Source: Turbatrix aceti
Taxonomy: Eukaryota > Nematoda > Chromadorea > Rhabditida > Panagrolaimidae
Reading direction: 5' to 3'
Assembly: GCA_963969345.1 (NCBI GenBank)
Contig: OZ017769.1
Coordinates: 10,047,725 to 10,111,724 of the forward strand
Length of the DNA stretch: 64,000 nucleotides
Both the position numbers and the translations under genes were made by a program. Shown here in pieces: positions 15,524 through 44,338 of this stretch. The notes beneath the pieces were generated by a model. The model had not been told where the DNA came from and did no database searches. It worked only from the letters and a program-made list of their open reading frames with translations. Position 1 is the stretch's first letter, and every line of letters starts with the position of its first letter.

Positions 15524-16120
15524 TTGTCTTTGTGCAACGCCACAAATAAATTAAAAAAAAGGATGTATTTCACGTGTTCTTGCTACATATGTATATTACT
15601 AACTTACTCTGTTTGAAAGAGTCTTTTGTTGTGCTTTGATGCATCTTTTTGACATTTAGTACTAGTTTTCGCACGCATTATTTTTCACCGTGCTCAAAAG
15701 CGAGCAAGCGATTTTGTTGTGTAGTTTGGTTCTGTCAGTGTTGCCTTTTTGTTAATATTGTTTTCATAAATCAAAAAACAGGCATTTTTATTTGCCGACC
15801 TTGATTGTATTTTAATTTAAATTACTATGTCGAACATATTTAATTGCTAGCCAACAATCAATTCTTCAATAAATTGGACTTCATATTGTTATCCACAATT
15901 TCTAGTACGTAGTATAAATGTTTCTCGTGTTTCTCGTGTGCAACTTTTCATTTAGTAAATAATAAATATGTTACATACAAAAGTACATATAATGGCTATC
16001 CACATTCCCATGTGTCCATGATAACTTTAAATTCGAGCTTTTGTCCGCCTACGATAGAGACCTAATTTTTATAGTAAACATTAACAGTGTACATTGTATA
16101 CTGTTACACTGACGGATCTC
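15524..16120. other. Promoter region of the 16.1-kb receptor gene
   Basis: AT-rich intergenic DNA without recognisable elements. The reading frame of the receptor continues a short way upstream of its first ATG but only through a non-ATG codon. Confidence 0.4.
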
Positions 16121-17204
16121 ATGTCAATATGCAGTGCCAATATTTCTCTATTCGTCGACCCCCTCGAAAATTGGGAGATCAAGCTTCTAAACATCTTGGC
16201 ATTTGTTCCCTTTGTCTATAGCATCCCGACACTTGTTATTCAGTGCATGATGTTTTACGTCCTTCTACGACCACATGGACCAAAAATATTTAGAACAGGA
16301 TTTTATCGAATTGTGTTGTTTTCATTTATACCTGTAAGTCATATTTTTTTGGGATTTAATGATCAAATTAAGGATTTTAAGAATACATTAGTAATCATTA
16401 CCATGCCCTTTGTCACAAGGTTCGGTCACTCAACAATCCTTGCTCCGATATACGTTTGGTTTATGGATCATAGTTTTTTGGTATCAATTATAGTATCTGT
16501 AACGTTTTACTGTTACTTTGCGATTTTGTTAAACATTCTTGCAATTTCCTTTAATCGATACAGCCTTCTCGCCTGGCCTCTGAGTGCTCGGGTATTTTGG
16601 ACAAATCACACGACAAAAATATTGATTGTTCTGTATTGTATTCCTCTGATGCTGATATCACAAGTGTTCTACGGCGGAGGATGTGTCGAAATATTTCCGT
16701 ACGCTTATGGTATTGATTATCACACGGATGACATTCCACTGCGCTTGCAACTTCTTATGCTAATGGTTATTGTTGCCGTTCTTTGTTGTGTTATTTCTAC
16801 TTATTTGAATTTCTATGTACTTTTTCGCCTTATTAAGTACAAAAACACAAGAGACAAAGAATTCAGAATGACGGTGTACAGTACTGTGATTGCGGGGTGT
16901 TTGTTTTTATTCATCGTTATCGAAGTAAGTTTGCGTCCTTTGTCAAAATTTTCCAAATATTTAATATAGTATGTATTATAAAAATACCATTTTTTAGATT
17001 TGTGTAATGTTGTATGCAAGCACCGGCGCTCATCAGTCTCTTGTCAACTGGGCAGTAAGGTGTATACCATTTATCTGCGATGCCGTACTGCTTTGTCAGT
17101 GTTGGTTTTTGTTGGCATTGTGTTCAGACATTAGAAAACAGCTTCGACATATTATGAGTTCTGTTCATTCACAAACTGTAGTGCAAGTTACTAGCAGGCA
17201 TTGA
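16121..17204 (+). CDS. Serpentine 7TM chemoreceptor (Srg/Srv-like)
   Basis: Two exons (16121-16924 and 16998-17204) are joined by a 73-nt GT-AG intron in phase 0, giving 336 residues, the usual nematode chemoreceptor length. Hydropathy by eye shows seven membrane segments. The first ends in an IPTLVIQCMMFYVLL stretch, the third is followed by the DRY-equivalent FNRY, and the last is in exon 2 before a short cytoplasmic tail. There is an N-glycosylation site (NIS) near the N-terminus. The YSIPTL and FNRYSLLAWP motifs suggest the Srg/Srv superfamily, which are olfactory-type GPCRs of ciliated neurons. I chose ATG at 16121 because the upstream extension starts with TTG. It is transcribed away from the array gene and has no large ectodomain, unlike the minus-strand receptors. 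Family assignment is moderate. Confidence 0.85.
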
Positions 17205-17884: not shown

Positions 17885-20800
17885 TTAGTACAATTTAGGA
17901 GGCGCTGGTCTGCCATCAACGATTTCAATTGCACAAAGAACTTTGTTGTGATACCATGGATCTTCCAGGTACAAATCGTCTGTTCTACCGTATGCCAGCA
18001 TTCCTACGAATTCTTTGTGGTGAGCATTGTTCATATATTCTAGAGGCGCGGGTAGCGGGGTGTTGTCAATGTTCACAAAGCTTTTTTTGTTGTAAGGCTT
18101 TCCACACGGAATACGGATCCCAAGAAGAGTATACGAATGGGGGCTCACCAATTTTTCTGAAAGATGAACCGTAAAAATTATGACAATAATAGTTGTAAAA
18201 AAATACTCAGAAATTGGCGTTCTTTAATTGATTTGATCATTGCAGGAATGGCGTATTGATGAAGAGATTTGCATGCATTTTCCAATTCACATCGAGTAAT
18301 GTTGCTTTTTGATGTATATACTTTATAGCATTTTTTGACGCCTTTGATATTCTTGAATTTGTAGGTGTTATCGGGGCATCCGTCGTTCGTTCTTTTGGAC
18401 TTAATCGCTTGACGAGCACACTCAACGGCGTAGACTTCAGAATCGGTCGCCCCTGTAGTACCTGTACTTTTGCAGGCACTTTCAGGAGACTATTTAAATG
18501 TATCAGTAATTTTAAATGGTTTAAAGGAAATACTTACTGTTTTGCTTTCGTTATATGCAACTTGTCGAGAACAAATAGTGTCTCCCGTTAGAACACCATC
18601 ATTTGGTGGCTTGTATTCCGAAGGACATTCATACTCATCATCACCACAGGATCTTGATGATGATAATTCAAGTTGGAATGTCTCTTGCTCCATAAGTTTG
18701 GCTGGCTTGATAACTTCGTTCAATTTAGGAGGCGCTGGTCTGCCATCAACGATTTCAATTGCACAAAGAACTTTGTTGTGATACCATGGATCTTCCAGGT
18801 ACAAATCGTCTGTTCTACCGTATGCCAGCATTCCTACGAATTCTTTGTGGTGAGCATTGTTCATATATTCTAGAGGCGCGGGTAGCGGGGTGTTGTCAAT
18901 GTTCACAAAGCTTTTTTTGTTGTAAGGTTTTCCACACGGAATACGGATCCCAAGAAGAGTATACGAATGGGGGCTCACCAATTTTTCTGAAAGATGAACC
19001 GTAAAAATTATGACAATAATAGTTGTAAAAAAATACTCAGAAATTGGCGTTCTTTAATTGATTTGATCATTGCAGGAATGGCGTATTGATGAAGAGATTT
19101 GCATGCATTTTCCAATTCACATCGAGTAATGTTGCTTTTTGATGTATATACTTTATAGCATTTTTTGACGCCTTTGATATTCTTGAATTTGTAGGTGTTA
19201 TCGGGGCATCCGTCGTTCGTTCTTTTGGACTTAATCGCTTGACGAGCACACTCAACGGCGTAGACTTCAGAATCGGTCGCCCCTGTAGTACCTGTACTTT
19301 TGCAGGCACTTTCAGGAGACTATTTAAATGTATCAGTAATTTTAAATGGTTTAAAGGAAATACTTACTGTTTTGCTTTCGTTATATGCAACTTGTCGAGA
19401 ACAAATAGTGTCTCCCGTTAGAACACCATCATTTGGTGGCTTGTATTCCGAAGGACATTCATACTCATCATCACCACAGGATCTTGATGATGATAATTCA
19501 AGTTGGAATGTCTCTTGCTCCATAAGTTTGGCTGGCTTGATAACTTCGTTCAATTTAGGAGGCGCTGGTCTGCCATCAACGATTTCAATTGCACAAAGAA
19601 CTTTGTTGTGATACCATGGATCTTCCAGGTACAAATCGTCTGTTCTACCGTATGCCAGCATTCCTACGAATTCTTTGTGGTGAGCATTGTTCATATATTC
19701 TAGAGGCGCGGGTAGCGGGGTGTTGTCAATGTTCACAAAGCTTTTTTTGTTGTAAGGTTTTCCACACGGAATACGGATCCCAAGAAGAGTATACGAATGG
19801 GGGCTCACCAATTTTTCTGAAAGATGAACCGTAAAAATTATGACAATAATAGTTGTAAAAAAATACTCAGAAATTGGCGTTCTTTAATTGATTTGATCAT
19901 TGCAGGAATGGCGTATTGATGAAGAGATTTGCATGCATTTTCCAATTCACATCGAGTAATGTTGTTTTTTGATGTATATACTTTATAGCATTTTTTGACG
20001 CCTTTGATATTCTTGAATTTGTAGGTGTTATCGGGGCATCCGTCGTTCGTTCTTTTGGACTTAATCGCTTGACGAGTACACTCAACGGCGTAGACTTCAG
20101 AATCGGTCGCCCCTGTAGTACCTGTACTTTTGCAGGCACTTTCAGGAGACTATTTAAATGTATCAGTAATTTTAAATGGTTTAAAGGAAATACTTACTGT
20201 TTTGCTTTCGTTATATGCAACTTGTCGAGAACAAATAGTGTCTCCCGTTAGAACACCATCATTTGGTGGCTTGTATTCCGAAGGACATTCATACTCATCA
20301 TCACCACAGGATCTTGATGATGATAATTCAAGTTGGAATGTCTCTTGCTCCATAAGTTTGGCTGGCTTGATAACTTCGTTCAATTTAGGAGGCGCTGGTC
20401 TGCCATCAACGATTTCAATTGCACAAAGAACTTTGTTGTGATACCATGGATCTTCCAGGTACAAATCGTCTGTTCTACCGTATGCCAGCATTCCTACGAA
20501 TTCTTTGTGGTGAGCATTGTTCATATATTCTAGAGGCGCGGGTAGCGGGGTGTTGTCAATGTTCACAAAGCTTTTTTTGTTGTAAGGTTTTCCACACGGA
20601 ATACGGATCCCAAGAAGAGTATACGAATGGGGGCTCACCAATTTTTCTGAAAGATGAACCGTAAAAATTATGACAATAATAGTTGTAAAAAAATACTCAG
20701 AAATTGGCGTTCTTTAATTGATTTGATCATTGCAGGAATGGCGTATTGATGAAGAGATTTGCATGCATTTTCCAATTCACATCGAGTAATGTTGTTTTTT

Positions 20801-23800
20801 GATGTATATACTTTATAGCATTTTTTGACGCCTTTGATATTCTTGAATTTGTAGGTGTTATCGGGGCATCCGTCGTTCGTTCTTTTGGACTTAATCGCTT
20901 GACGAGTACACTCAACGGCGTAGACTTCAGAATCGGTCGCCCCTGTAGTACCTGTACTTTTGCAGGCACTTTCAGGAGACTATTTAAATGTATCAGTAAT
21001 TTTAAATGGTTTAAAGGAAATACTTACTGTTTTGCTTTCGTTATATGCAACTTGTCGAGAACAAATAGTGTCTCCCGTTAGAACACCATCATTTGGTGGC
21101 TTGTATTCCGAAGGACATTCATACTCATCATCACCACAGGATCTTGATGATGATAATTCAAGTTGGAATGTCTCTTGCTCCATAAGTTTGGCTGGCTTGA
21201 TAACTTCGTTCAATTTAGGAGGCGCTGGTCTGCCATCAACGATTTCAATTGCACAAAGAACTTTGTTGTGATACCATGGATCTTCCAGGTACAAATCGTC
21301 TGTTCTACCGTATGCCAGCATTCCTACGAATTCTTTGTGGTGAGCATTGTTCATATATTCTAGAGGCGCGGGTAGCGGGGTGTTGTCAATGTTCACAAAG
21401 CTTTTTTTGTTGTAAGGCTTTCCACACGGAATACGGATCCCAAGAAGAGTATACGAATGGGGGCTCACCAATTTTTCTGAAAGATGAACCGTAAAAATTA
21501 TGACAATAATAGTTGTAAAAAAATACTCAGAAATTGGCGTTCTTTAATTGATTTGATCATTGCAGGAATGGCGTATTGATGAAGAGATTTGCATGCATTT
21601 TCCAATTCACATCGAGTAATGTTGCTTTTTGATGTATATACTTTATAGCATTTTTTGACGCCTTTGATATTCTTGAATTTGTAGGTGTTATCGGGGCATC
21701 CGTCGTTCGTTCTTTTGGACTTAATCGCTTGACGAGTACACTCAACGGCGTAGACTTCAGAATCGGTCGCCCCTGTAGTACCTGTACTTTTGCAGGCACT
21801 TTCAGGAGACTATTTAAATGCATCAGTAATTTTAAATGGTTTAAAGGAAATACTTACTGTTTTGCTTTCGTTATATGCAACTTGTCGAGAACAAATAGTG
21901 TCTCCCGTTAGAACACCATCATTTGGTGGCTTGTATTCCGAAGGACATTCATACTCATCATCACCACAGGATCTTGATGATGATAATTCAAGTTGGAATG
22001 TCTCTTGCTCCATAAGTTTGGCTGGCTTGATAACTTCGTTCAATTTAGGAGGCGCTGGTCTGCCATCAACGATTTCAATTGCACAAAGAACTTTGTTGTG
22101 ATACCATGGATCTTCCAGGTACAAATCGTCTGTTCTACCGTATGCCAGCATTCCTACGAATTCTTTGTGGTGAGCATTGTTCATATATTCTAGAGGCGCG
22201 GGTAGCGGGGTGTTGTCAATGTTCACAAAGCTTTTTTTGTTGTAAGGCTTTCCACACGGAATACGGATCCCAAGAAGAGTATACGAATGGGGGCTCACCA
22301 ATTTTTCTGAAAGATGAACCGTAAAAATTATGACAATAATAGTTGTAAAAAAATACTCAGAAATTGGCGTTCTTTAATTGATTTGATCATTGCAGGAATG
22401 GCGTATTGATGAAGAGATTTGCATGCATTTTCCAATTCACATCGAGTAATGTTGCTTTTTGATGTATATACTTTATAGCATTTTTTGACGCCTTTGATAT
22501 TCTTGAATTTGTAGGTGTTATCGGGGCATCCGTCGTTCGTTCTTTTGGACTTAATCGCTTGACGAGTACACTCAACGGCGTAGACTTCAGAATCGGTCGC
22601 CCCTGTAGTACCTGTACTTTTGCAGGCACTTTCAGGAGACTATTTAAATGTATCAGTAATTTTAAATGGTTTAAAGGAAATACTTACTGTTTTGCTTTCG
22701 TTATATGCAACTTGTCGAGAACAAATAGTGTCTCCCGTTAGAACACCATCATTTGGTGGCTTGTATTCCGAAGGACATTCATACTCATCATCACCACAGG
22801 ATCTTGATGATGATAATTCAAGTTGGAATGTCTCTTGCTCCATAAGTTTGGCTGGCTTGATAACTTCGTTCAATTTAGGAGGCGCTGGTCTGCCATCAAC
22901 GATTTCAATTGCACAAAGAACTTTGTTGTGATACCATGGATCTTCCAGGTACAAATCGTCTGTTCTACCGTATGCCAGCATTCCTACGAATTCTTTGTGG
23001 TGAGCATTGTTCATATATTCTAGAGGCGCGGGTAGCGGGGTGTTGTCAATGTTCACAAAGCTTTTTTTGTTGTAAGGCTTTCCACACGGAATACGGATCC
23101 CAAGAAGAGTATACGAATGGGGGCTCACCAATTTTTCTGAAAGATGAACCGTAAAAATTATGACAATAATAGTTGTAAAAAAATACTCAGAAATTGGCGT
23201 TCTTTAATTGATTTGATCATTGCAGGAATGGCGTATTGATGAAGAGATTTGCATGCATTTTCCAATTCACATCGAGTAATGTTGCTTTTTGATGTATATA
23301 CTTTATAGCATTTTTTGACGCCTTTGATATTCTTGAATTTGTAGGTGTTATCGGGGCATCCGTCGTTCGTTCTTTTGGACTTAATCGCTTGACGAGTACA
23401 CTCAACGGCGTAGACTTCAGAATCGGTCGCCCCTGTAGTACCTGTACTTTTGCAGGCACTTTCAGGAGACTATTTAAATGCATCAGTAATTTTAAATGGT
23501 TTAAAGGAAATACTTACTGTTTTGCTTTCGTTATATGCAACTTGTCGAGAACAAATAGTGTCTCCCGTTAGAACACCATCATTTGGTGGCTTGTATTCCG
23601 AAGGACATTCATACTCATCATCACCACAGGATCTTGATGATGATAATTCAAGTTGGAATGTCTCTTGCTCCATAAGTTTGGCTGGCTTGATAACTTCGTT
23701 CAATTTAGGAGGCGCTGGTCTGCCATCAACGATTTCAATTGCACAAAGAACTTTGTTGTGATACCATGGATCTTCCAGGTACAAATCGTCTGTTCTACCG

Positions 23801-25378
23801 TATGCCAGCATTCCTACGAATTCTTTGTGGTGAGCATTGTTCATATATTCTAGAGGCGCGGGTAGCGGGGTGTTGTCAATGTTCACAAAGCTTTTTTTGT
23901 TGTAAGGCTTTCCACACGGAATACGGATCCCAAGAAGAGTATACGAATGGGGGCTCACCAATTTTTCTGAAAGATGAACCGTAAAAATTATGACAATAAT
24001 AGTTGTAAAAAAATACTCAGAAATTGGCGTTCTTTAATTGATTTGATCATTGCAGGAATGGCGTATTGATGAAGAGATTTGCATGCATTTTCCAATTCAC
24101 ATCGAGTAATGTTGCTTTTTGATGTATATACTTTATAGCATTTTTTGACGCCTTTGATATTCTTGAATTTGTAGGTGTTATCGGGGCATCCGTCGTTCGT
24201 TCTTTTGGACTTAATCGCTTGACGAGCACACTCAACGGCGTAGACTTCAGAATCGGTCGCCCCTGTAGTACCTGTACTTTTGCAGGCACTTTCAGGAGAC
24301 TATTTAAATGTATCAGTAATTTTAAATGGTTTAAAGGAAATACTTACTGTTTTGCTTTCGTTATATGCAACTTGTCGAGAACAAATAGTGTCTCCCGTTA
24401 GAACACCATCATTTGGTGGCTTGTATTCCGAAGGACATTCATACTCATCATCACCACAGGATCTTGATGATGATAATTCAAGTTGGAATGTCTCTTGCTC
24501 CATAAGTTTGGCTGGCTTGATAACTTCGTTCAATTTAGGAGGCGCTGGTCTGCCTTCAACGATTTCAATTGCACAAAGAACTTTGTTGTGATACCATGGA
24601 TCTTCCAGGTACAAATCGTCTGTTCTACCGTATGCCAGCATTCCTACGAATTCTTTGTGGTGAGCATTGTTCATATATTCTAGAGGCGCGGGTAGCGGGG
24701 TGTTGTCAATGTTCACAAAGCTTTTTTTGTTGTAAGGCTTTCCACACGGAATACGGATCCCAAGAAGAGTATACGAATGGGGGCTCACCAATTTTTCTGA
24801 AAGATGAACCGTAAAAATTATGACAATAATAGTTGTAAAAAAATACTCAGAAATTGGCGTTCTTTAATTGATTTGATCATTGCAGGAATGGCGTATTGAT
24901 GAAGAGATTTGCATGCATTTTCCAATTCACATCGAGTAATGTTGCTTTTTGATGTATATACTTTATAGCATTTTTTGACGCCTTTGATATTCTTGAATTT
25001 GTAGGTGTTATCGAGGCATCCGTCGTTCGTTCTTTTGGACTTAATCGCTTGACGAGTACACTCAACGGCGTAGACTTCAGAATCGGTCGCCCCTGTAGTA
25101 CCTGTACTTTTGCAGGCACTTTCAGGAGACTATTTAAATGTATCAGTAATGTTAAATGGTTTAAAGGAAATACTCACTGTTTTGCTTTCGTTATATGCAA
25201 CTTGTCGAGAACAAAGACTATCTCCCGTTAGAACACCATCATTTGGTGGCTTGTATTCCGATGGACATTCATACTCATCATCACCACAAGATCCTGATGA
25301 TAGTGTGAATGATTTGTTCTTCGTGGCCGACAATAGAGGGAGGGCACAAAAAAGGAACAGGAGAGAGAGTTGATACAT
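17885..25378 (-). CDS. Secreted nine-module tandem repeat protein
   Basis: Exon 1 (25178-25378) encodes a signal peptide (MYQLSLLFLFCALPLLSA) plus the first C segment. Nine A exons (283 nt, first at 24847-25129) alternate with eight B-C exons (449 nt, first at 24348-24796). A final B exon (17885-18156) ends PPKLY-stop. Introns are 48 nt (donor GTGAGT or GTAAGT, phase 0) and 50 nt (phase 1). Each 830-bp unit leaves 732 coding nt, exactly 244 codons, so the whole array stays in frame and predicts about 2203 residues. Each module has 11 cysteines. Segment A carries C-x-D and KCYKVY, then RCE and CKSLH. Segment B carries IRIPCGK, then FVN-DN-PLP and CAIEIV. These motifs, their order and the phase-1 A/B intron match the ectodomain of the four receptor genes next door. 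There is no membrane segment, so the product should be secreted and multivalent. The function is unknown; a decoy, ligand-binding or matrix role is inference. Confidence 0.85.
17891..25310. repeat. 830-bp tandem repeat, about nine copies
   Basis: Copies recur at exactly 830 bp with no indels and only scattered base differences. Diagnostic variants cluster. GTAAGGTTTT is shared by the copies near 18.93, 19.75 and 20.58 kb. GTTGTTTTTT is shared by the copies at 19.96 and 20.79 kb. ATGCATCAG is found only at 21.82 and 23.48 kb, two units apart. The outermost copies are more divergent, notably the one at 25.1-25.3 kb, as expected for an array homogenised by unequal crossing-over. Confidence 0.95.
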
Positions 25379-26228: not shown

Positions 26229-28517
26229 TCAATTGCACATTTTTTTTAAGAATCTTTGAATTTCTCGGTCATAGAATAACAGCGATAAAGTGGGAAGTAA
26301 AATAATGATGTTATAGCCTATTTGCATGAACATCAAATTTCCAGCGTAGCTCCATGCAAAGGGCGGGTATGGCTGATCTCTTTGTTGAAAGTATGGTTTT
26401 ATGAAAGCTGGAATGGTGTTTGCAAAGGACAGAATTACTATTCGTTTCACGCTTTTTGCATATCTGGTACCCGATGTCCAAGATATAATCGTAAAAAATT
26501 TTCGACCATTTTGGAATCGGTATTTGATGTTGAAAGCAATTTCAAGTATAATTAAGGTGTTCATTGGTACAAATATGAAATAACGATATGGCGAATATGT
26601 AAAAAAATACACCTATAAATAAGTGTTTTTACTGTACTTTTATGGTTTGACCATACCCGCCAGGAGGCGTCCCCGATATTCCTCGGTGAATTATGCCATG
26701 GATTTCGGGGGATTCAAGGATAAAAATTTAAAAAGAAGCGTATTTTTGATTCCATTTAATTTTTTTTAATTTGCATCATCTTTGTCCCTGGCTCTCCCCG
26801 TGCCCGGACACACTTTTTGTACGAGTCCTAATTGTAAGCACAAAAGTTTAAAAAGTAAGTTTTAACTTTTTTAAAAACTTACTTGTAATTTTAGTGAAAC
26901 CACATCAGTTGTATACCGCCAAAACTGGAAAGTCTTATTCAGACGATCAATTGCAAAAAATATTTTTCCAAATAAGTTGATCAGAAGTAGTGAATTGATA
27001 CACAGCCATATAAAAATTGAAAACATATAAAGTATATGTCCCTCAAAGAATCGCTCATTCCATTGAGGAGAAAAGAAAATACAAAACTGACTAAATGCCA
27101 ATAACTGTAAAAATATTATCGTGACGACTTCATATATTTTATGGATTATTACTAGTTGGAGGGCACCAATTATCGTTGCGCTATCGATTTCGCGACTGGT
27201 ATATATACCAAAGAAAATTGATATTGATTCGATGAATGTTACTGTTGTCTGACCAATGTGTGCCAAAACTACGTTTAACAAAAACCAGTGATATTGTGTA
27301 CTTTTCTTTATTCTGAAAAACAAGATGTTTAAAAATTCGTTTTGGAGATATTACGTATTTTTTTGTGTATGTAACATCTCCAAGAAAATTTTTGTGTCAG
27401 ACCTACCGTGGATAAAAACCACAGCATAGGCAAATCAATAAACATGATCACACATCCCACCATGAAATTGCATAATGTTTGAATGACTACTGTTAATGTA
27501 TCATCCGACTCAGCATTATAACTTATATACGACGAATCTGAGTTATACTCAGGATAATCATCACCGATCTCTTCCGACGGCAGATATACAGAGCGATGAA
27601 AGCACAGCGTTTTGTTATCAATAGTTGCCAAATTGTAATTAGTCATATAAACTAAAATTGTCTTATTTTTGTTTTTATAAAATTTATATAAAATAGCAAA
27701 TAGCCTAGCCTGTAGAAACAAAAAAACAGAAGACAAATCCGGATTTGATAAAAAAAATTTAAGACTAACCCTCATTACACATGCGATTAACAGGTTCTAT
27801 GGGAAGAACTATCTCGCAGACTGTGTCGTCAACTATGGCCTCGCTTAGATGAATACTCTCCACCATTAAAAATCTTTTTTGTACGTTGTGCGACGCCAGA
27901 ATGCCTTCCCGAACGCTGCCATTGTCATTGTATCTGTAATCTTTGATTGAACTGATGAACGGCACAACGACAGGTGAACCGTTAGCGTTTATAAATTTGT
28001 ATTTTCCGTTGGGTTTTCTGATGCCGTGGCTGCGACAAGGAACGTGCATTCCTGTGGCATAGTTTTCAAAATACTCGTCTGAAAACAGAAAATTTACATT
28101 ATTTACAAAATTTCAGTTTAATAATGTTGTTATTCGCTTTCAAATTTGCAACTATTCAAAACAAAAAAAATCGGTTTTGTTTCTTTTAAAATTCACAAAT
28201 CGTAGCATTTTTTTGGAATAACAAAACATACCTAGAATATATTTTTCGTCCATTGACAAAATGGAGACAGGAAGCGACGATTCGTGAAGTGGCTTGCACC
28301 AGTTTGGAATTTCACATCTCGAAAGATTTTCGGGTCGATAAAACTTGTAGCACTTAGAATAATCATATGACATAATCAATTCCCAATCTTGATCTGGACA
28401 CTCAAGCTCGGTATATGGCTTTGGTCGTTGTGGAATGGGGATGATTCCATGGAGAAACAGTATTTGAAATAAAAAAAACAATATTTTTAAACAGAATGCG
28501 GATAAAGGTGTACACAT
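26229..28517 (-). CDS. 7TM receptor with cysteine-rich ectodomain, copy 1
   Basis: Five exons: 28232-28517, 27770-28078, 27407-27651, 26883-27305 and 26229-26612, giving about 548 residues. Exon 1 holds a signal peptide, then PIPQRPKPYTELECPDQDW and the KCYKFY, RCEIPNWCK, LHESSLP block (segment A). Exon 2 is segment B (GMHVPC, KFINANGSPVVVP, CEIVLP). Exons 3-5 carry seven hydrophobic segments. The third is followed by FSQFCIFFSP in place of a DRY/NRY motif. Two oddities are visible. The normal acceptor of exon 4 (at 27312) gives a frameshift relative to paralogues and only an alternative AG seven bases further on keeps frame. The conserved C-terminal tail (SNK-x-HV-x) is cut off by a TGA at 26229. 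It may therefore be a decaying gene. The neighbouring copies support the receptor family; the ligand is unknown. Confidence 0.72.
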
Positions 28518-28910: not shown

Positions 28911-30666
28911 TTAAACAACGTGAATCTTGTTTGATCGCCCGTTGCAAACGACTTTCAAAAAATCCCGAATATCCTGGTCGTACAATGCCAGTGACAACGT
29001 AGGTAGTAAAATTTCAAGTTCCGATAAGATTTCAACTGACACCAGATGCCAAACATAATTCCATTTAAATCTACTGTAAGTCTGATCGTCCGGAATCAGA
29101 AAATTCACCACTGCGTTAATTTGAATAATGAAAACAGGAATGATGTTAGCTGCCGAAAGAAACACAATTCGTTTCACGCTTTTGCCATACCGCGTGCCGG
29201 ATGTCCAGGATTGAATTGTAAAAAATTGACGTCCACTCTTGAAACGATATTTGATGTTTTAAAAAACAGATTTCAAAGATTATAAGGATGTTCATTGGCA
29301 CAATGATGAAAGAGCGGTAGGACATAGCTCTGTACAATAGTGACTAAAAATTATTATTTTTTGGTTTCTGTAAATTAACAAACACTAAAGCATACATTAA
29401 TAGTTTCTATTGCATCCTGAATTTTAAACCGCCACAAAAACAGAGGTGCATGCGATGTTTCCATTAACAACCGAATGAAAAGCGCAAAGTTGATATAAAA
29501 CCACATAAAAAGAGAATAGATGTACGGTAAGTGCCGGTCAAAAAAACGTTCGTTAGATCGAGGAGAAAAAAATATGAGAAACTGATTCATAGATAACAAC
29601 TGCAAAAATATACAAATAGCATTGGAAAACAAATTTATGCATATCTCGTCGTACAGTCCGGAATTAATCTTGGAAATGTCAATTTCATGACTGGTGTACA
29701 TGGCGATAAAAACTATGATGGATTTGACAAGCTCTATTGTCATCAGACAAATGTGACTCATAACTGTGTTTAATAGAAACCAGTAGTATGTTTCTTTGTT
29801 GGAATATTTATCACGGTTCTAAAAATAAGAGTTTTCATTAATTATGGAGATAACAGTAAAATGTTTCCCGCCACGATTATTTATTTTTATGAAGTTACAA
29901 ACTTACCGTACACAAAAACCACAACATAGGGAAGTCGATTATCAGTGTCATACTCGACATCATGGCACCACATACTGACTCTATAATCGTTGTCATACTG
30001 TAGAAAAAGAATAAATCACTCTGTGTATCGTCATATCTGTTGTACAATGGATCCGAGTTGTAATCGGGATAATCGTCATCGACCTCACCCGAACTTACTT
30101 GAAGATTGCCACCCGAAGGGAGATAAACCGAACGATGTAAGCACAACTTTTTGCCATCAATAATTGCCAAATTGTAATTTAAACCAAATTCTAAATAAGG
30201 TTTAAATAAATGTTGTAATTGAAATTTTAGCCATACCGTCCGCGTCGCAAATGCCGTCGACAGGTTCTAATGGGAGGACGATCTCGCAAAGAATATTGTC
30301 CATTTTGAAAACGCTTAGATCATTGAGCAGATTATACCCATACGACACGAGAATTCCCTCTTGAAGTTCGCCATTGTCGTTGTAGATATCGTTATAGCTG
30401 CTGTATTCTTTGTTTATGTTTGTATACGGTACTACGACGGGGGATCCATTTGCATTTATGAATTTGTACTTTCCGTTCGGTTTTTTGAGACTTTCATTGC
30501 GGCAGGGAACATGCATTCCTGTTGCGTAGGTATCAAAAACTAAGTCTAAAAAAATTTGAAAAAGTTTAAAACTAAAAAAAAAGATATTTTTTGACATACA
30601 TAACAAAACAAACCTAGCATATCTTTTTCGTCCATGGATAAGATGGATACCGGAAGTGAAGATTCA

Positions 30667-32010
30667 CACTGAAAAAAAAAACTGACGAATGAAAACGTCA
30701 GAATCAGTGAAAACGTTAGAAAAACTGACGATTTGCACAAAATCGTTAGAAAAACTGACGATCAGGGACGTCATGAAATAACTGATGATTTTAAAGGAAA
30801 ATCGTCAGTTTTTTCCTGACGTTTTGAGACAAGTACGCGTTTCACAAATCTTCATTTTTTTTCTAAGTAAAACGTCAGTTTTTTTCTGATGTTTTTGCCT
30901 GTATAGGTTGAGAATAAAATATTTGGCAATGTGCCACAAGTTTCTATCAATTTTACGCAAATTTTGCGACGAGCTCGCATTTCGCAATGATTTTTTCTTG
31001 TTTTTCTCATTTGTATTTTTTGAAGTTCAGCTCATTATTGTATTTCTCGTTGCCGCAGTGTAGTTGTTCATCAGTCAGTCCGTCTATCGCACTCTACTTT
31101 TTTTGGCAATGATCTTGAGAAGAACGGCAAAGCAACCCCGTAAGACGTTCAAATTACGGTTGACATCAATAACAGTAAGTTTTTTTGGTATGTGAAAGAA
31201 AACACTGTTTTAAAGCATTTGCAGAGAGTATGCTGACTTTGGCAGCTTCGCGCAATGGCATTTTTAGATTGTTAGCGATCTCATCTGCCGCAATGATTAG
31301 GGCAAGTCCTGAGATATCAAACAAGCTATCAACGGCACAAAAATGTTGATTTTTGGCACAGCTGCAATTGTTCGCAAACAAGGTGAAAGCACATGCTGTG
31401 CATTTTTGACAATGCATGAAGTGAAAACAACCTGTGGATTGATTATTCGCGTTTTACACTGGCATGTTATTTGTTCTAATAAGTCAAACTGAAACCTTCA
31501 ACAGCTCAAACAATAACTACTATTTATTTTCAGGTAAAGTCAGGCTATGAATGCTGTGGCTTCATAACAGCGACATTTGTCTACGCCTGCCAAGTTTACT
31601 TGAATCGAACCATCAACCGACGACAACGACAACATCAACGAATTTTTATTTTTTTGGATATAATTTGTTTTTTTATTGTATATGTGTATGTATGTAGAGA
31701 TAAATTAATGGAAGCTCATGCTATATATGTATTGTGTATGTGCAAACCAGTAGGCCAAGATTGTACAGCAAAACAATAAACCAATATTGGAGACGATTTG
31801 CCAAGCGGATTCGGGTAAAAACGTCAGTTTTTTTCTGATTTCTTCAATCGTCAGTTTTTCTAACGAATGCAAAACTGATTTCTTCAATCGTCAGATTTTC
31901 TAACGAATGCAAAACTGACTTTTGTAATCGTCAGTTTTTTTCTGACGAATGGGGACGTCAGTAAAACTAACGAAAAATCGTCAGTTTTTCTAACGTTTTT
32001 TTTTTCAGTG
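30667..32010. mobile_element. 1344-bp DNA transposon inserted in receptor exon
   Basis: Both ends read CACTGAAAAAAAAAAC inward, and the flanks carry a 2-bp CA duplication (30665-30666 and 32011-32012). The subterminal regions hold many copies of CGTCAGTTTTTCTAACG-like repeats in both orientations. One 83-codon minus-strand frame (31166-31417) has internal similarity to the arms of the 35.6-36.5 kb palindrome but no recognised transposase. The poly-T-CAG at the minus-strand 3' end of the element resembles a splice acceptor. I could find no donor in the right phase, so clean splicing-out is unlikely. The superfamily is unclear. Confidence 0.8.
31166..31417 (-). CDS. Small ORF inside transposon, function unknown
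   Basis: 83 codons with a CxxC-x-AC start (MHCQKCTACAFTLF) and a stretch MPLREAAKVSI that is echoed in the arms of the palindromic element at 35.6-36.5 kb (compare MLREASKVNT). Shared amino-acid-level similarity suggests a once-coding sequence, either a transposase remnant or captured host gene. I do not recognise it. Confidence 0.3.
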   Translation of the reverse strand: MHCQKCTACAFTLFANNCSCAKNQHFCAVDSLFDISGLALIIAADEIANNLKMPLREAAKVSILSANALKQCFLSHTKKTYCY

Positions 32011-32251
32011 CATGAAGCGGCTTGCACCAATTTGGAATTTCACAACGTGAAAGGTCTTCCGTGTTTCTATCTAGACGGTAAAGCTTGTAGCATTTAAAAT
32101 AGTCGCCAAACGTATCAAAATCCCAATTGTCATCGGGGCAATCGAGTTCAGTATATGGCTTTGGTCGCTGTGGAAAAGGCATTTTTGATCGAATAAACCA
32201 AATTTGGGAAAACAAAATTAATAACAACGTTATCGGAGATAGCATTGTCAT

Positions 32252-32785
32252 GCAGTTTTTTTGCTCATTGAGCAATAACTGTTGATGAATTGCCTTTACT
32301 AATGTTCAAAACATTGGGTCTTTTCACCTGGTATTTTAATTTTGGCAGCTTGCAAGCGGCTTCTTGACAGATGGTAAAAAAAATTGAGTGGCCACTTTTA
32401 CCACAAAAAATATAGGCTACATAAATACTAAATCATTTCACGTTATCGTAACTAGCAAGTAAGTTTAGTTATTTTGAGTCTCATTTTACAATCAGCACGT
32501 TGCATTCCCTCCAGGAACAGTCATCATATGAGCCTTTCACCAAACAAACTTGGGTGGTTCTCCATACAGATCGTTCATCATACACGCTTTTTACCATAAG
32601 GCGATTCACCATATCACCAAGTATACGGAATTTTTGGGGAGAAAATTGAAGGTTTAGTCACACATCTCAGATTTTGTAAATTTTTGAAGATTATATACGA
32701 CTTTTAAGTTTTTACAAATTAAAATTTGTAAATTGAAAAATGTTTGCTCGAACATTATTTTTGTAATGTTAAAAAACTCTAGATT
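32252..32785. other. Intergenic, promoter side of receptor copy 2
   Basis: AT-rich spacer without recognisable genes. Confidence 0.4.
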
Positions 32786-33344: not shown

Positions 33345-35387
33345 TTAAATCACATGAATTTTGTTTGACTGTCCTCTACATGTTACCGTCATAAATTTTT
33401 GAAGTTCCAGATCAAAGAACAATAATGACAATGTTGGAAGTACAATAATAATGTTATAAGCTGTTTGAGTAAACATTAAAATTCCAATGTAACTCCAAGC
33501 AAAAGGAGGTAACGGTGGTTCTCTATTTGGTTCGTATGGTTTTACAAAAGCCGGAAGAATGTTTGCGACCGCCAGAATCGCAATTCGTTTTACGTTCTTG
33601 CCGTATCTGATGCCCGATGTCCAGGGCATAACTGTAAAAAATTTACGACCGCTCTTGAATCGATATTTGATGTTAAAACAAAGTTCCAGTATGATAAGGA
33701 TGTTTAGAGGAACAAAAATGAAATAACGGTATAACAGAATGTTTTGAAGATACGACTGAAAACATTAAATATTTGCATTTTTTACATTTAAAAAATTACA
33801 CATACATGGACTATCATGGTGTACCTTTTCAAATTCCACCACAACTCAAACGGAATTTTATCAAATCTTGGAAACATTACTTCTAGAATAATAAGAATGA
33901 GAAGTGTTGAGTTGATATACAGCCATATAAAAAGCGAATACAAGTAAAGTGTGTGTCCCTCAAAAAGCCGTTCATTCCATCGCGAAGAGAAAAAGATGCA
34001 AAACTGACTGACTGTTAACAACTGCAGAAATATTGATACAGCATTTTCATACAAAAATAAGCTGATGTTAAAGTTTTGCCCAGAATTCACATCTGTTATA
34101 TCAACTTCATGATTGGTATACATGTAAACAAAACTTATTATTGATCTAAAAAAAGTTGTTGTTATCTGACAAATGTGTCCCAGAACAACATTCAACAAAA
34201 ACCAGTAGTACGTTTGTCTGTTTGAATATATTTTATGATTCTGAAAAAAACTTAATTTATGCATAAACATTTTGAGGACATTTTATGCTCGGATCGGATA
34301 TCTCAAATTTTCTATCAAACCTACCATGCACAAAAACAAAAACATAGGCAAGGAAGTAACCAAGACAATAAATGCTACCATCAGATTGCATACTGTTTGA
34401 ATGATCATAGTTATGACGTCATCAGAGTCAATATTATAACTAATGTACATTGAATCCGAGTTGTATTCAGGATAGTTGCTTGCGACCTCGTCCGGTGCAA
34501 GATAAACCGAACGATGAAAGCATAGCGTTTTGTTGTCGATTGTTGCCATATTATAATTCACTCCAGATGCTAAAAAATGATACACACACACATTTTTAAA
34601 TTTAGTATTCTTAAATATTTTTAATGAGGTTAAAAATATTATCGCAAGTGCCTTGAAAAGGTTTCAGAGGCAGAACTAGCTCGCAGATAGTGTAGTCAAT
34701 TATGGTTTCGATTAGGTGCGTACTTGACATTAAAACTGAAAAAAAATTTTATAACTGACAAATTGCGCAAAAACTTACCGTTTTTGCTTCTAATGTGCGA
34801 TCCCAGAATTCCTTCCCGAAGACTGTTATTGTCATTGTATCTGTAATCTTTGATTGAACTGATGAACGGCACAACGACAGGTGAACCGTTAGCGTTTACA
34901 AATTTGTATTTTCCGTTGGATTTTCTGATGCCGTGGCTGCTGCAGGGAACGTGCATTCCTGTGGCATAGTTTTCAAAATACTCGTCTGAAAACGGAAAAC
35001 TTATATTACAAAATTTCAATTTACGTTTGCATAAAATTTGAATTTTAAATTGAAGACAAAGTTGGTATTTGTCTTCAATTTTGCAACAAATATGTACAAA
35101 TACCGACCAAGTCGAATTTTTTCGTCCATTGACAAAATGGAGACAGGAAGCGACGATTCGTGGAGTGGCTTGCACCAATTTGGAATTTCACATCTCGAAA
35201 AATTTTCCGGTTGATAAAACTTGTAGCATTTGGAATAATCATATAGCATAATCAATTCCCAATCTTGATCTGGACACTCAAGCTCGGTATACGGTTTTGG
35301 TCGCTGTGGAATAGGAAATTTTCCGAAGAGAATCAAAATTGGGGACAACAACATTAACATTAAGCTCGTTGACAAAAACGTTGACAT
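33345..35387 (-). CDS. 7TM receptor with cysteine-rich ectodomain, copy 3
   Basis: Exons 35108-35387, 34779-34985, 34735 to about 34652, 34325-34569, 33806-34240 and 33345-33755, giving about 553 residues. The signal peptide precedes PIPQRPKPYTELECPDQDW. Segment A (KCYKFY, RCEIPNWCK) and segment B (GMHVPC, KFVNANGSPVVVP, CELVLP) are followed by seven hydrophobic segments and the C-terminal tail SNKIHVI. It differs from the others by an extra intron inside segment B (34736-34778, phase 1). The exon after it has no GT donor before a stop. A GC donor after CAAG at 34652 would keep phase but would drop the cysteine that ends segment B in paralogues. All other junctions are canonical and frames are open, so it is probably functional if the GC donor is used. 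Confidence 0.78.
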
Positions 35388-35555
35388 TAATATGGATTTA
35401 CAAAATATTATGGCGGGGTAGTATATTAGACGTTAAAATATTGCTATTCTGTTGTTTACGCATAAACATCAGCTCCACATGAGTATACAATAATTGTATA
35501 CTCAATTATTCAGTTGACAGTTTTTTTAGACTTTTACACCTCTGTATTTGTCACT
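35388..35555. promoter_or_regulatory. Upstream region of receptor copy 3
   Basis: Short AT-rich upstream region with an ATTGTATACTC/GAGTATACAAT inverted repeat at about 35481-35505. No defined promoter element is certain. Confidence 0.3.
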
Positions 35556-38528: not shown

Positions 38529-40547
38529 TTAGACAACGTGAACCTTGTTTGATCTTCCCTTACACACAATTTTTAAATAATTTCGAATGTCTTGATCAGT
38601 AATTAAAAGCGACAATATAGGAAGTATGCTTTCTATAGCGTATATAATTTCACGTAATACATTATGTTGTACAATTTCCCAAGAAACCGTTTTTCGGAAA
38701 TCGGAAGTAAAAAGATCTGTGACAGGCAACAAAACCTTCTTAACAGCGTAAAATATATTTTCAATGTTGGGATAAAAAAAAGCCAGAATGATGTTTGCGA
38801 TTGCCAGAATCACAACTCGTGGTGCACTTTTGGAATACATAGTGCCCGATAACCATGAAAAAATTGATAAGAATTTACATCCGCTCTTGATTCGATACAG
38901 GATGTTGAAATAAATTTCGAGACTGATAAAGATGTTCAATGGTACAAAAATGTAGCAGCGGTACGCCAAAGCTGTGTATACGTGTTTCTAAAAAATGTTC
39001 AGCTTCAAATTTTCAATTTAAATTTTTTTTACTTATAATAAACATACGTTTAAATCTACAGTGAAGCTCTTTATGGCTATCCGCCATAATACAAATGTAG
39101 AACTCAAATCTTTTGCATGCAATGTTTCGACCATCCATTGAACAAATAATGTAAAGTTAATATAAAGCCATACCAAAAAGCAAAATAAATAAGGCAAATG
39201 CCCCTCAAAAAGTCGTTTATTCCATCGAGGAGAACAAAAATTTAGAAACTGTTGAATAGTCAACACTTGCAAAAATATTGATGACACATTGGTGTATATT
39301 TTGAAAATTATCTGATCGTACAATTCAAAATTGATTTTTCTAAGATCAACATCGTGGTGATTGTACATGGCGTAATAAATTGTGATTGATTTAACAAAAA
39401 TTATAGCCATCAGACAAATGTGTCCCAAAACTATGTTCAAAGCAAACAGATGATACGTTTTTTTGCATGAATAATTTTTTTGATTCTGAAAATGTAAATA
39501 TTAAGTGAATTGGCAATTAAACGCATTTTCTTCGCTCTATCGGGCTTACCGTATACAAAAACCAAAACATAACCAAGTCAATAAATAAAATGTGACTAAC
39601 TAACATAGCTTTGCAAACCGATGCTATAATGTGATGTATCATGTTAAAATAATACACATCATATTGTTGATAGTCATATCTGTTGTACAATGGATCCCAG
39701 TCGTAGTCGGGATAGTCGTCATCGACTTCTCCTGAAGGCAGATAAACCGATCGATGAAAGCACAGTGCTTTGTTGTCAACAGTTGCCAAATTGTAATTTG
39801 CTCCAAAATCTGAAACGCATTTTCATTTTCATTTGCCATAAAAACCATACTCTTATGTTTGCAAGTGTTGTTAACAGGTGCCAAGGGGAGAACTATTTCG
39901 CAGAGAATGTTACCAATTAATGCCACATTTTGGTCATTAAGTAATTCTTCGCCTAAAGACATCAAAATGCCTTCCTGAAGACTTCCTTCGTCGTCGTAAA
40001 TATCGTCATCGTAATAGTTGTATGCTTTGTTCAGACTGGTGTACGGTACAATAACAGGTGATCCGTTTGCATTTATAAATTTATATTTTCCGTTGAGTTT
40101 TTTTAGGCTGTCGTTACGGCAGGGAACGTGCATCCCTGTAGCGTAAGTACCAAAAATGTCGTCTGTAAAAACAGGCAAATAAAATAAACAAATCTAAATT
40201 TTTTTATGATAGATCGATGTTAAAACAAATTTGTTATTTTTTTTGCTCAAAAAACGTCAACCTAGTTCATATTTTTCATCCATTGACAAGATGGAAACAG
40301 GAAGCGAAGATTCGTGAAGCTGCTTGCACCAATTTGGAATTTCACATCTTGATTTGTTTTGTGGGAAATATAACTGATAACACTTTTTAAAATCACCAGT
40401 ATCCCAATCAATTGTTGCCCAGTTTTCATCGGGGCACTCGAGCAAGGTGTACGGCTTTGGTCGCTGTGGAGGTGTGACTTTCCCATACAGAAACAAAAGC
40501 TGGGAGAGAAAAATGAATATTAAGTTGGTAAACGCAAGCGCTGCCAT
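38529..40547 (-). CDS. 7TM receptor with cysteine-rich ectodomain, copy 4
   Basis: Exons 40262-40547, 39851-40162, 39550-39809, 39048-39485 and 38529-38987 join in frame (phases 1, 1, 0, 0) to give 584 residues. All donors are GT and all acceptors AG. The signal peptide (MAALAFTNLIFIFLSQLLFL) precedes PPQRPKPYTLLECPDENW, then KCYQLY, RCEIPNWCK and LHESSLP (segment A) and GMHVPCRND, KFINANGSPVIVP, CEIVLP (segment B). A stalk rich in D, Y and N leads to the first of seven hydrophobic segments. Segment 3 is followed by IQQFLNFCSPRWNKRLF rather than a DRY/NRY motif. The C-terminus is GRSNKVHVV. I chose ATG at 40547 because the upstream extension begins with TTG and because it makes exon 1 exactly 286 nt, as in copy 1. 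This is the most intact member of the cluster. Confidence 0.85.
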
Positions 40548-40679
40548 ACTGCTCGACAAATGAGTTAATGGCTATAAAAGCACTGCTACCTGTCTAATTT
40601 GTTTGAGAAAACCAAAGCGGATTTTTCACCTGCAACACGGCGCACCGCAAGAGCCTTTCAAATGTGTAAATGCTGATTA

Positions 40680-43900: not shown

Positions 43901-44338
43901 ACAAAAGTTAAACAAAAAAAACAAAAACTTTGCATGCTCACAAAAATGGATAGGTTTTTTTAAATCAATAGAACGAACCCATATCAATTTGCATCAACCG
44001 CTTAATTTATATGCGAAACTAGACGTCCGCTTGCACGTATTTTTCTACTATTTATCTTGGCACAAACCCGACTCAAAAATTTTATGAGAACACGCAGTTG
44101 GCATTTCCTTTTGTTGCATACAAGATGTAAACAATGTTGTTTTACCGTCCATTGCACGTTTTTTAACCTTATGTTTTTTTGGTTTGCTTATTTGGTATTC
44201 GGGTCATTTTTATTGTTGAATTCATAACATTGTACATTTTCAGCGACTAGAAGAAATGTTATTTCATATTAGTAATTTCTAATTATTTTTCAAAACTTTT
44301 AACGGTATAAAAAAATTTTCCGTCCAGCAAAGAGCAAA
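40962..44338. other. Intergenic, mostly repeats and AT-rich DNA
   Basis: A decayed relative of the CAGGGTGGCGAA hAT MITE may span about 41450-41690 (TTCCCATG and TTTTGCCACCC motifs). A tRNA-like T-arm on the minus strand (GGGGGTTCAAATCC, followed by a T run) lies at about 43825-43845. The frame at 43270-43692 on the minus strand lacks any recognised domain. I see no gene that I can support. Confidence 0.4.

What the first reader, a model, noticed from the sequence alone, without database searches (positions are those of the whole stretch)
17885..25378. A nine-module secreted protein built from a receptor ectodomain
Seen: an 830-bp tandem array in which two short introns leave exactly 244 codons per unit, so nine copies read as one open frame from a signal peptide to a stop, with no membrane segment. 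Segments A (KCYKxY, RCE, CKxLH) and B (xxPCG, FVN/FIN-x-N-x-P, CAIEIV/CEIVLP) match the ectodomain of the four adjacent receptor genes. The intron between A and B has the same place and phase 1. Inference: a receptor gene lost its membrane exons and its ectodomain exons were tandemly amplified, giving a soluble multivalent product that could bind the same ligands (decoy, carrier or agglutinin) or bind the receptors. I know of no described system of this form.
Basis: partly seen in the sequence, partly recalled or inferred. Interest (0 to 1): 0.88.

Follow-up and report, generated by a model that had tools for sequence, protein, structure and literature searches.

The report
Nine-copy secreted nematode lectin-like polyprotein
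A nematode gene encodes one secreted protein made of nine nearly identical copies of a divergent C-type-lectin-like module, most likely amplified from an ordinary secreted gene and not from the neighbouring receptors, and each copy carries a possible cutting site that could release it as a separate protein.

Summary
The array is real: nine 830-bp units, two tiny introns each (48 and 50 nt), 244 codons per unit, one 2203-residue frame with a signal peptide and no membrane segment. Segments A+B are homologous to the neighbouring receptors' ectodomain, with the same phase-1 intron. [quoted passage not shown] reversed control 74). The receptor-loss origin is not supported. The genome holds about 100 such modules, mostly in one- to three-module genes without a 7TM match. 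The array's closest relative is a single-module secreted gene 72 kb away; the receptors form a separate clade. A second, independent 7-module array lies 6.5 Mb away. Each unit carries one KSKR, matching the published cleavage consensus of nematode polyprotein allergens, in the linker before the CTLD; cutting there would release eight CTLD-tail proteins in the domain order usual for the family. I favour a tandemly repetitive CTLD polyprotein over an uncut nine-valent agglutinin, but no expression or protein data exist. Copy number rests on the assembly. New variant of a known kind.

The parts
17885..25378 (-). whole array gene: signal peptide, nine tail+CTLD units, stop; 2203 aa, 18 introns
25325..25378 (-). 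signal peptide (about 18 residues, MYQLSLLFLFCALPLLSA; cut site assumed by eye)
   Evidence: hydropathy maximum at the N-terminus
24459..25288 (-). unit 1 (most divergent)
23629..24458 (-). unit 2
22799..23628 (-). unit 3
21969..22798 (-). unit 4
21139..21968 (-). unit 5
20309..21138 (-). unit 6
19479..20308 (-). unit 7
18649..19478 (-). unit 8
17885..18648 (-). unit 9, ends ...PPKLY-stop where the inner units run on into the linker
25130..25177 (-). intron 1 of unit 1 (48 nt, phase 0, inside the tail segment); repeated every 830 bp
24797..24846 (-). intron 2 of unit 1 (50 nt, phase 1, between CTLD halves A and B); repeated every 830 bp
24848..25018 (-). CTLD half A of unit 1 (same place in each unit)
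24564..24773 (-). CTLD half B of unit 1 as matched by the profile, including the variable loop region
26229..28517 (-). neighbouring receptor R1: signal peptide, CTLD A, CTLD B, stalk, about seven hydrophobic helices (helices by eye)
28911..32305 (-). receptor R2; its A half is interrupted and continues about 1.3-1.4 kb on
33345..35432 (-). receptor R3; its B half matches only to position 48 of 72
38529..40571 (-). receptor R4

Best explanation
The gene makes a secreted, tandemly repetitive protein whose unit is a Cys-rich tail segment plus a divergent C-type-lectin-like domain (shown by sequence). It arose by recent tandem duplication of a single-unit secreted gene of a large CTLD family in this genome, not from a 7TM receptor (tree support, inferred origin). 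Most likely the precursor is cut by a subtilisin-like convertase at KSKR, present once per unit just before the CTLD, releasing about eight near-identical 244-residue CTLD-tail proteins plus end pieces, in the manner of nematode polyprotein allergens (inferred). The array would then be a dosage device for one soluble binding protein whose ligand is unknown. Anatomy and origin about 0.85; cleavage step about 0.5.
For: One frame from signal peptide to stop with no other hydrophobic stretch. CTLD: the secreted-only profile A4 finds LY75 at E 1.7e-7, and 57 of 59 matched PDB sequences at E up to 10 are CTLD proteins by name or recall, as are all 10 below E 0.01; the same sequences reversed matched one PDB sequence at E up to 10, not a CTLD. 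Origin: array sister to single-module secreted gene L009p, 100/98; 201 bits against L009p versus 63 for the best receptor; intron 2 of L009p begins with the same letters. KSKR occurs once per unit, nine times in all, in the 13-residue linker between tail and CTLD; 15% of shuffled units hold such a motif anywhere, which scales to under 1% for that linker (scaling my own). [quoted passage not shown] Cutting there gives fragments of 82, 8 x 244 and 151 residues after an assumed 18-residue signal peptide, with the tail after the CTLD; outside the window the tail begins within 20 nt after a B half in 17 of 20 matches. [quoted passage not shown] here they are 48 and 50 nt. All nine loop regions are identical, as expected for dosage, not for breadth.
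Against: No transcript or protein data. The motif was looked for after the NPA parallel came to mind, and identical units make it one observation. The same motif type lies inside the A-B domain of 7 of 88 distinct modules, where it is unlikely to be a release site, so it also arises by chance or other constraint. Lys at P4 is weak for furin itself (recalled). The second array (7 modules) has no Lys or Arg in any of its 6 linkers. The one other gene with tail before CTLD (L009, minus strand) has no such site there (read). Two- and three-module genes with very short linkers suggest that the family also uses uncut multivalent proteins.
Confidence: 0.5

Rival explanations
1. The protein stays intact and works as a nine-valent secreted CTLD agglutinin or coat component, whose identical sites give avidity for a repetitive surface such as microbes, cuticle or eggs.
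For: Multi-module genes are common in the family: of 51 non-receptor gene clusters in the fetched stretches and window, 18 had one A-B pair, 18 two, 5 three, 1 seven, 1 nine and 8 no full pair (approximate, one single-pair cluster is an overlap of two fetched stretches). The 7-module array has no basic residue in its linkers. Eleven Cys per unit, an odd number, leaves one that could cross-link chains (count, rest inference). A secreted nematode CTLD protein, Mermaid, aggregates symbionts on the cuticle (PMC7308585, passages).
Against: KSKR in each unit's linker. The classical Ca-dependent sugar-binding motifs (recalled) are nearly absent: EPN in 0, WND in 0 and QPD in 1 of 88 distinct modules.
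Confidence: 0.35
2. One reading: a receptor gene lost its membrane exons and its ectodomain was amplified into a soluble decoy or carrier for the receptors' ligands.
For: Shared A-B homology and phase-1 intron, a tail segment that resembles the receptor stalk by eye, neighbouring position on the same strand.
Against: Array sits next to L009p in the tree, receptors form a distant clade, joint clade p-AU 0.030; array-receptor identity about 30% (three receptors) versus 67% to L009p. A decoy role without that origin remains open.
Confidence: 0.05
3. Assembly or annotation artefact: the number of units is wrong, or the array is an unexpressed or decaying amplification of a coding exon set.
For: Units are over 99% identical apart from unit 1, hard for assemblers; no expression evidence available.
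Against: Units carry different SNP combinations and a distinct first and last unit; frame and splice sites are intact in each of the nine units; homologous genes at many loci.
Confidence: 0.1

Closest known systems
Nematode polyprotein allergens (NPA, ABA-1)
   Different: The NPA unit is an all-helical lipid-binding fold (same passages); here it is a Cys-rich CTLD plus tail. Cleavage here is not shown.
Multi-CTLD proteins (LY75/DEC-205, mannose receptor family)
   Same: Several CTLDs in one chain; an LY75 CTLD is the best PDB match
   Different: Those are membrane proteins with divergent CTLDs and other domains (recalled); here nine near-identical copies, secreted, with a tail segment in each unit.
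Nematode small C-type lectins (clec genes)
   Same: Large nematode family of mostly secreted proteins with one or two CTLDs (PMC3534327, passages)
   Different: The modules here fall below Pfam Lectin_C detection, carry their own six-Cys pattern and a conserved phase-1 intron, and reach seven and nine copies.
CTLD-bearing GPCR of Bursaphelenchus (Bxy|Bu_11124, latrophilin-like)
   Same: CTLDs fused to a 7TM receptor in a nematode (PMC9085898, passages)
   Different: That is an adhesion GPCR with a GPS site; the 7TM part here gives only a weak srxa chemoreceptor match (E 0.64, below cut-off).

Membership tests
C-type-lectin-like domain superfamily | Sequence profile similarity to known CTLDs | tested here: met
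   Secreted-only profile A4: LY75 E 1.7e-7, 57 of 59 matches CTLD; reversed control 1 match, 0 CTLD. But Pfam Lectin_C: 1 of 27 members, E 0.062, below cut-off.
C-type-lectin-like domain superfamily | CTLD three-dimensional fold | not testable with these tools
C-type-lectin-like domain superfamily | Receptor ectodomain alone recognised as CTLD | tested here: inconclusive
   Receptor profile A3 (9 receptors, 2 L050 modules): 3 matches, one a CTLD at E 0.15; but A3 versus A4 profiles align at probability 99.6.
Ca-dependent carbohydrate-binding C-type lectins | EPN or QPD plus WND motifs (recalled) | tested here: not met
   EPN 0, WND 0, QPD 1 of 88 distinct modules. Fold membership does not depend on this.
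Tandemly repetitive polyproteins (NPA-like) | Near-identical tandem units in one secreted frame with very small introns | tested here: met
   criteria from PMC3079579; one message not shown
[quoted passage not shown]
   KSKR at residues 97, 341, 585, 829, 1073, 1317, 1561, 1805, 2049: nine of nine units
Tandemly repetitive polyproteins (NPA-like) | Actual post-translational cleavage | not testable with these tools
   no protein data
Nematode polyprotein allergens proper | NPA lipid-binding unit | tested here: not met
   Pfam scan of the unit gave one weak match, not an NPA; the unit is a CTLD plus tail.
Receptor-derived soluble ectodomain | Array groups with the receptors in a tree | tested here: not met
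   (p-AU 0.030)

The most novel reading that the evidence does not exclude
First tandemly repetitive polyprotein built of C-type-lectin-like domains: a nematode lineage uses the same divergent CTLD both as ectodomain of a chemoreceptor-like 7TM family and as mass-produced soluble units, in two independently amplified arrays, one homogeneous (dosage) and one with a homogenised scaffold and several loop types (breadth), so that soluble and receptor forms could read the same class of ligands.
Probability: 0.3. Interest if true: 0.75.

Novelty: new variant of a known kind. Interest (0 to 1): 0.52.

Why it matters
If the KSKR sites are used, the tandemly repetitive polyprotein strategy, which PMC3079579 (passages) calls rare and illustrates with filaggrins and NPAs, would extend to lectin-like recognition proteins. 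The comparison of array 1 (nine alike) with array 2 (constant scaffold, several loops) would make the question of why such polyproteins evolve testable within one genome. The family also ties a CTLD ectodomain to chemoreceptor-like 7TM proteins, a possible route from microbe or glycan binding to signalling in nematodes.

Tried and rejected
Receptor-loss origin: not supported by tree, identity and AU test. Common origin of the two arrays as one amplification: rejected, p-AU 4.2e-5. Pfam for the unit: only a weak Furin-like match (E 0.061, 13.6 bits against a cut-off of 26.8). DUF7495, a weak match of one distant member (E 1.8e-4, 22.2 bits against 27): a search of this genome found nothing, but its controls rang nowhere either, so uninformative; no paper names it in the library. 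Protein database searches with one module and with profile A2 found nothing at E up to 10, which I take as lack of nematode coverage, not tested. A Lectin_C search of the genome listed 32 classical places, none of them in the fetched A-B loci by my comparison of coordinates. Paper searches aimed at nematode CTLD chemoreceptors, CTLD tandem proteins and polyproteins, and concerted evolution of CTLD arrays listed nothing that by title or abstract describes this form (one search asked for either of two terms, so it is weak; most listed papers were not opened). The receptor-only profile does not reach CTLDs on its own: a limit. In one search splice choice favoured phase 1, so the count was redone without that. 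One search failed (wrong splice, then an error) and was replaced. The dibasic listing had an index slip and was not used.
Full report
OBSERVATION. The window lies in a 59.9-Mb genome of 28 contigs, at C5:10047725-10111724; 145 exact copies of the nematode SL1 leader (sequence recalled), with none of the reversed control, mark it as a nematode. On the minus strand, 25378 to 17885, nine 830-bp units, each with introns of 48 nt (phase 0) and 50 nt (phase 1), give one frame of 2203 aa; unit starts are spaced exactly 244 codons in 8 of 8 steps. Beyond the signal peptide the highest 19-residue hydropathy mean is 0.45, so no membrane segment. Units 2-9 differ at four positions (213, 420, 532 and 616 of the + strand unit), plus two at the 3' end of the last unit: by my reading, of the four, two change an amino acid, one is silent and one is intronic.

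DOMAIN IDENTITY. Across 27 aligned modules five of the six cysteines of A+B are invariant and one is in 26 of 27, with motifs such as KCYK and IPC. Pfam does not recognise the domain. A profile of those 27 modules, however, finds C-type-lectin-like domains: 59 of the 60 PDB sequences shown (65 matched at E up to 10) are CTLD proteins by molecule name, best LY75 at E 4.1e-7 over nearly the whole domain; only 6 of the 60 lie below E 0.01, and many chains are variants of one protein. A secreted-only profile of 12 gives LY75 at 1.7e-7 and 57 of 59, with all 10 below 0.01 CTLDs; the first 10-sequence profile gave 9 of 12. The same 12 sequences reversed give one match, a nucleoprotein at E 0.021, and no CTLD. 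The receptor profile (9 receptors, 2 L050 modules) is too narrow (3 matches, 1 CTLD, E 0.15), but receptor and secreted profiles align with probability 99.6 over the full domain, and 10 of 10 receptor ectodomains in the set score 48.9-63.2 bits against the array module while the best of 1540 shuffled sequences reaches 25.4. The A-B intron is phase 1 in 86 of 88 distinct modules, counted without a preference. So the homology claim holds, and the shared domain is a divergent CTLD.

THE UNIT'S OTHER PART. The rest of the unit is a Cys-rich tail in two exons. Its first exon was matched 20 times outside the window: in 17 of 20 it begins within 20 nt after a B half, in 2 (both weak) within 200 nt, and in one gene (L009, minus strand) it precedes the CTLD as in the array. 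The phase-0 intron inside it also recurs in the second gene of L010 (read by eye). The receptor stalk (C...Y...T..K.LC...SVYLP) resembles it by eye.

FAMILY AND ORIGIN. Searches with single proteins led to 40 further fetched stretches. In these, the six stretches and the window I found 100 A-B modules (one place counted twice where two stretches overlap), 88 distinct. This is a lower bound: searches scored only 150 of 220 and of 201 candidates, and not all hits were fetched. Of 51 non-receptor gene clusters, 18 hold one A-B pair, 18 two, 5 three, 1 seven, 1 nine and 8 no full pair (approximate, neighbouring genes may be merged). I call these genes secreted because no listed match to the receptors' 7TM part falls in them; signal peptides were seen only in a few. 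At least eleven receptor genes carry one module each, four of them in the window. In one of them (L047) the B half, stalk and first membrane helix lie in a single open exon, so the fusion to the membrane part is directly visible. A tree was built of 80 distinct modules; the other 8 (partial, or without a phase-1 splice, R3 among them) were left out. The receptors form one clade (100/98), the array modules another (100/98), and the array's sister is the single-module secreted gene L009p (100/98), 72 kb beyond the array. Holding array and receptors together costs 36 log units (p-AU 0.030); holding the two arrays together 82 (p-AU 4.2e-5). Only 136 alignment columns were kept, 18 of 77 inner branches are open and some end branches are long, so deep branches are unsure. 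The array therefore most likely grew from the secreted side of the family.

SECOND ARRAY. At C5:3529288-3532870 seven 520-bp units of A+B (one 46-nt intron each) form a second array, with a two-module gene downstream. Its units 1 and 2 have no differences in A (183 nt) or the B core (123 nt) but 28 in the last 111 nt, the region that in CTLDs holds the ligand-binding loops (region by analogy). Units 2-5 share one loop type, 1 and 6 have related loops of another, 7 a third. Units 6 and 7 also differ from the rest in the B core. Array 1 in contrast has one loop type. Between array 1 and L009p the loop region has 14 non-synonymous to 2 synonymous changes (dN/dS 1.7) against 0.4-0.5 elsewhere: few counts, suggestive only.

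MECHANISM. Shown by sequence: a soluble tandem protein of nine tail-CTLD units, recent homogeneous amplification. Inferred: processing. Each unit has exactly one KSKR, in the 13-residue linker just before the CTLD. [quoted passage not shown] Cutting here would give eight 244-residue CTLD-tail proteins, the domain order normal for the family. This is why I put a cleaved polyprotein first (0.5) and an intact nine-valent agglutinin second (0.35). Against it: the second array has no basic residue in its linkers, 7 of 88 distinct modules carry the motif inside the domain, and there is no protein evidence. The ligand is unknown; classical sugar-binding motifs are nearly absent (EPN 0, WND 0, QPD 1 of 88). 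A decoy function for the neighbouring receptors' ligands remains possible though unsupported.

LITERATURE. What I saw: passages of PMC3079579, PMC9085898, PMC3534327, PMC7308585 and PMC5297725; the rest only as search listings. In C. elegans 236 small C-type lectins with mostly one or two domains are counted, 83 of them upregulated on pathogen exposure (PMC3534327). A CTLD adhesion GPCR is described in Bursaphelenchus (PMC9085898). I found no description of a CTLD polyprotein or of chemoreceptor-like CTLD receptors in the listings, which cover openly licensed papers only.

Noticed in passing
L010 2289-5871 (C5:3529288-3532870): Independent seven-module CTLD array with 520-bp units; scaffold largely homogenised, loop region in three types; its linker (PNSPHPGYSLLAAQTASNG) looks like a remnant of the signal-peptide region.
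   Followed up: partly
L043-L049; L047 1186-1676 and onward: Seven further CTLD-7TM receptor genes outside the window; in L047 the ectodomain B half and first membrane helix share one open exon.
   Followed up: partly
L050: Three similar genes, each with two A halves and one B half; the two that entered the tree are sister to the receptor clade; architecture not resolved.
   Followed up: no
L009 minus strand, about 1490-2379 of the reverse complement: CTLD-like gene with a C-terminal hydrophobic end, perhaps membrane- or GPI-anchored (by eye).
   Followed up: no
C4:5143769-5145254, 5150516-5152001, 5157345-5158830: Three copies of a three-module gene with equal match scores, two of them inverted relative to the first.
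   Followed up: no
window 16085-16969 +: Open frame of 294 residues with several hydrophobic stretches, a likely serpentine receptor without CTLD (by eye, not searched).
   Followed up: no
window 44303-46333 +: Likely two-pore-type potassium channel (the exon at 44751-45293 matches Ion_trans_2, E 2.8e-23).
   Followed up: no
window 51214-52725 +: Low-complexity Ala/Pro/Gly protein ending in a Ground-like domain (E 4.1e-14).
   Followed up: no
window 59289-60755 -: Reverse transcriptase frame of a retroelement (RVT_1, E 3.1e-38).
   Followed up: no
C4:728148-753676: Run of SL1-leader copies spaced about 1.5 kb, probably a spliced-leader gene array.
   Followed up: no
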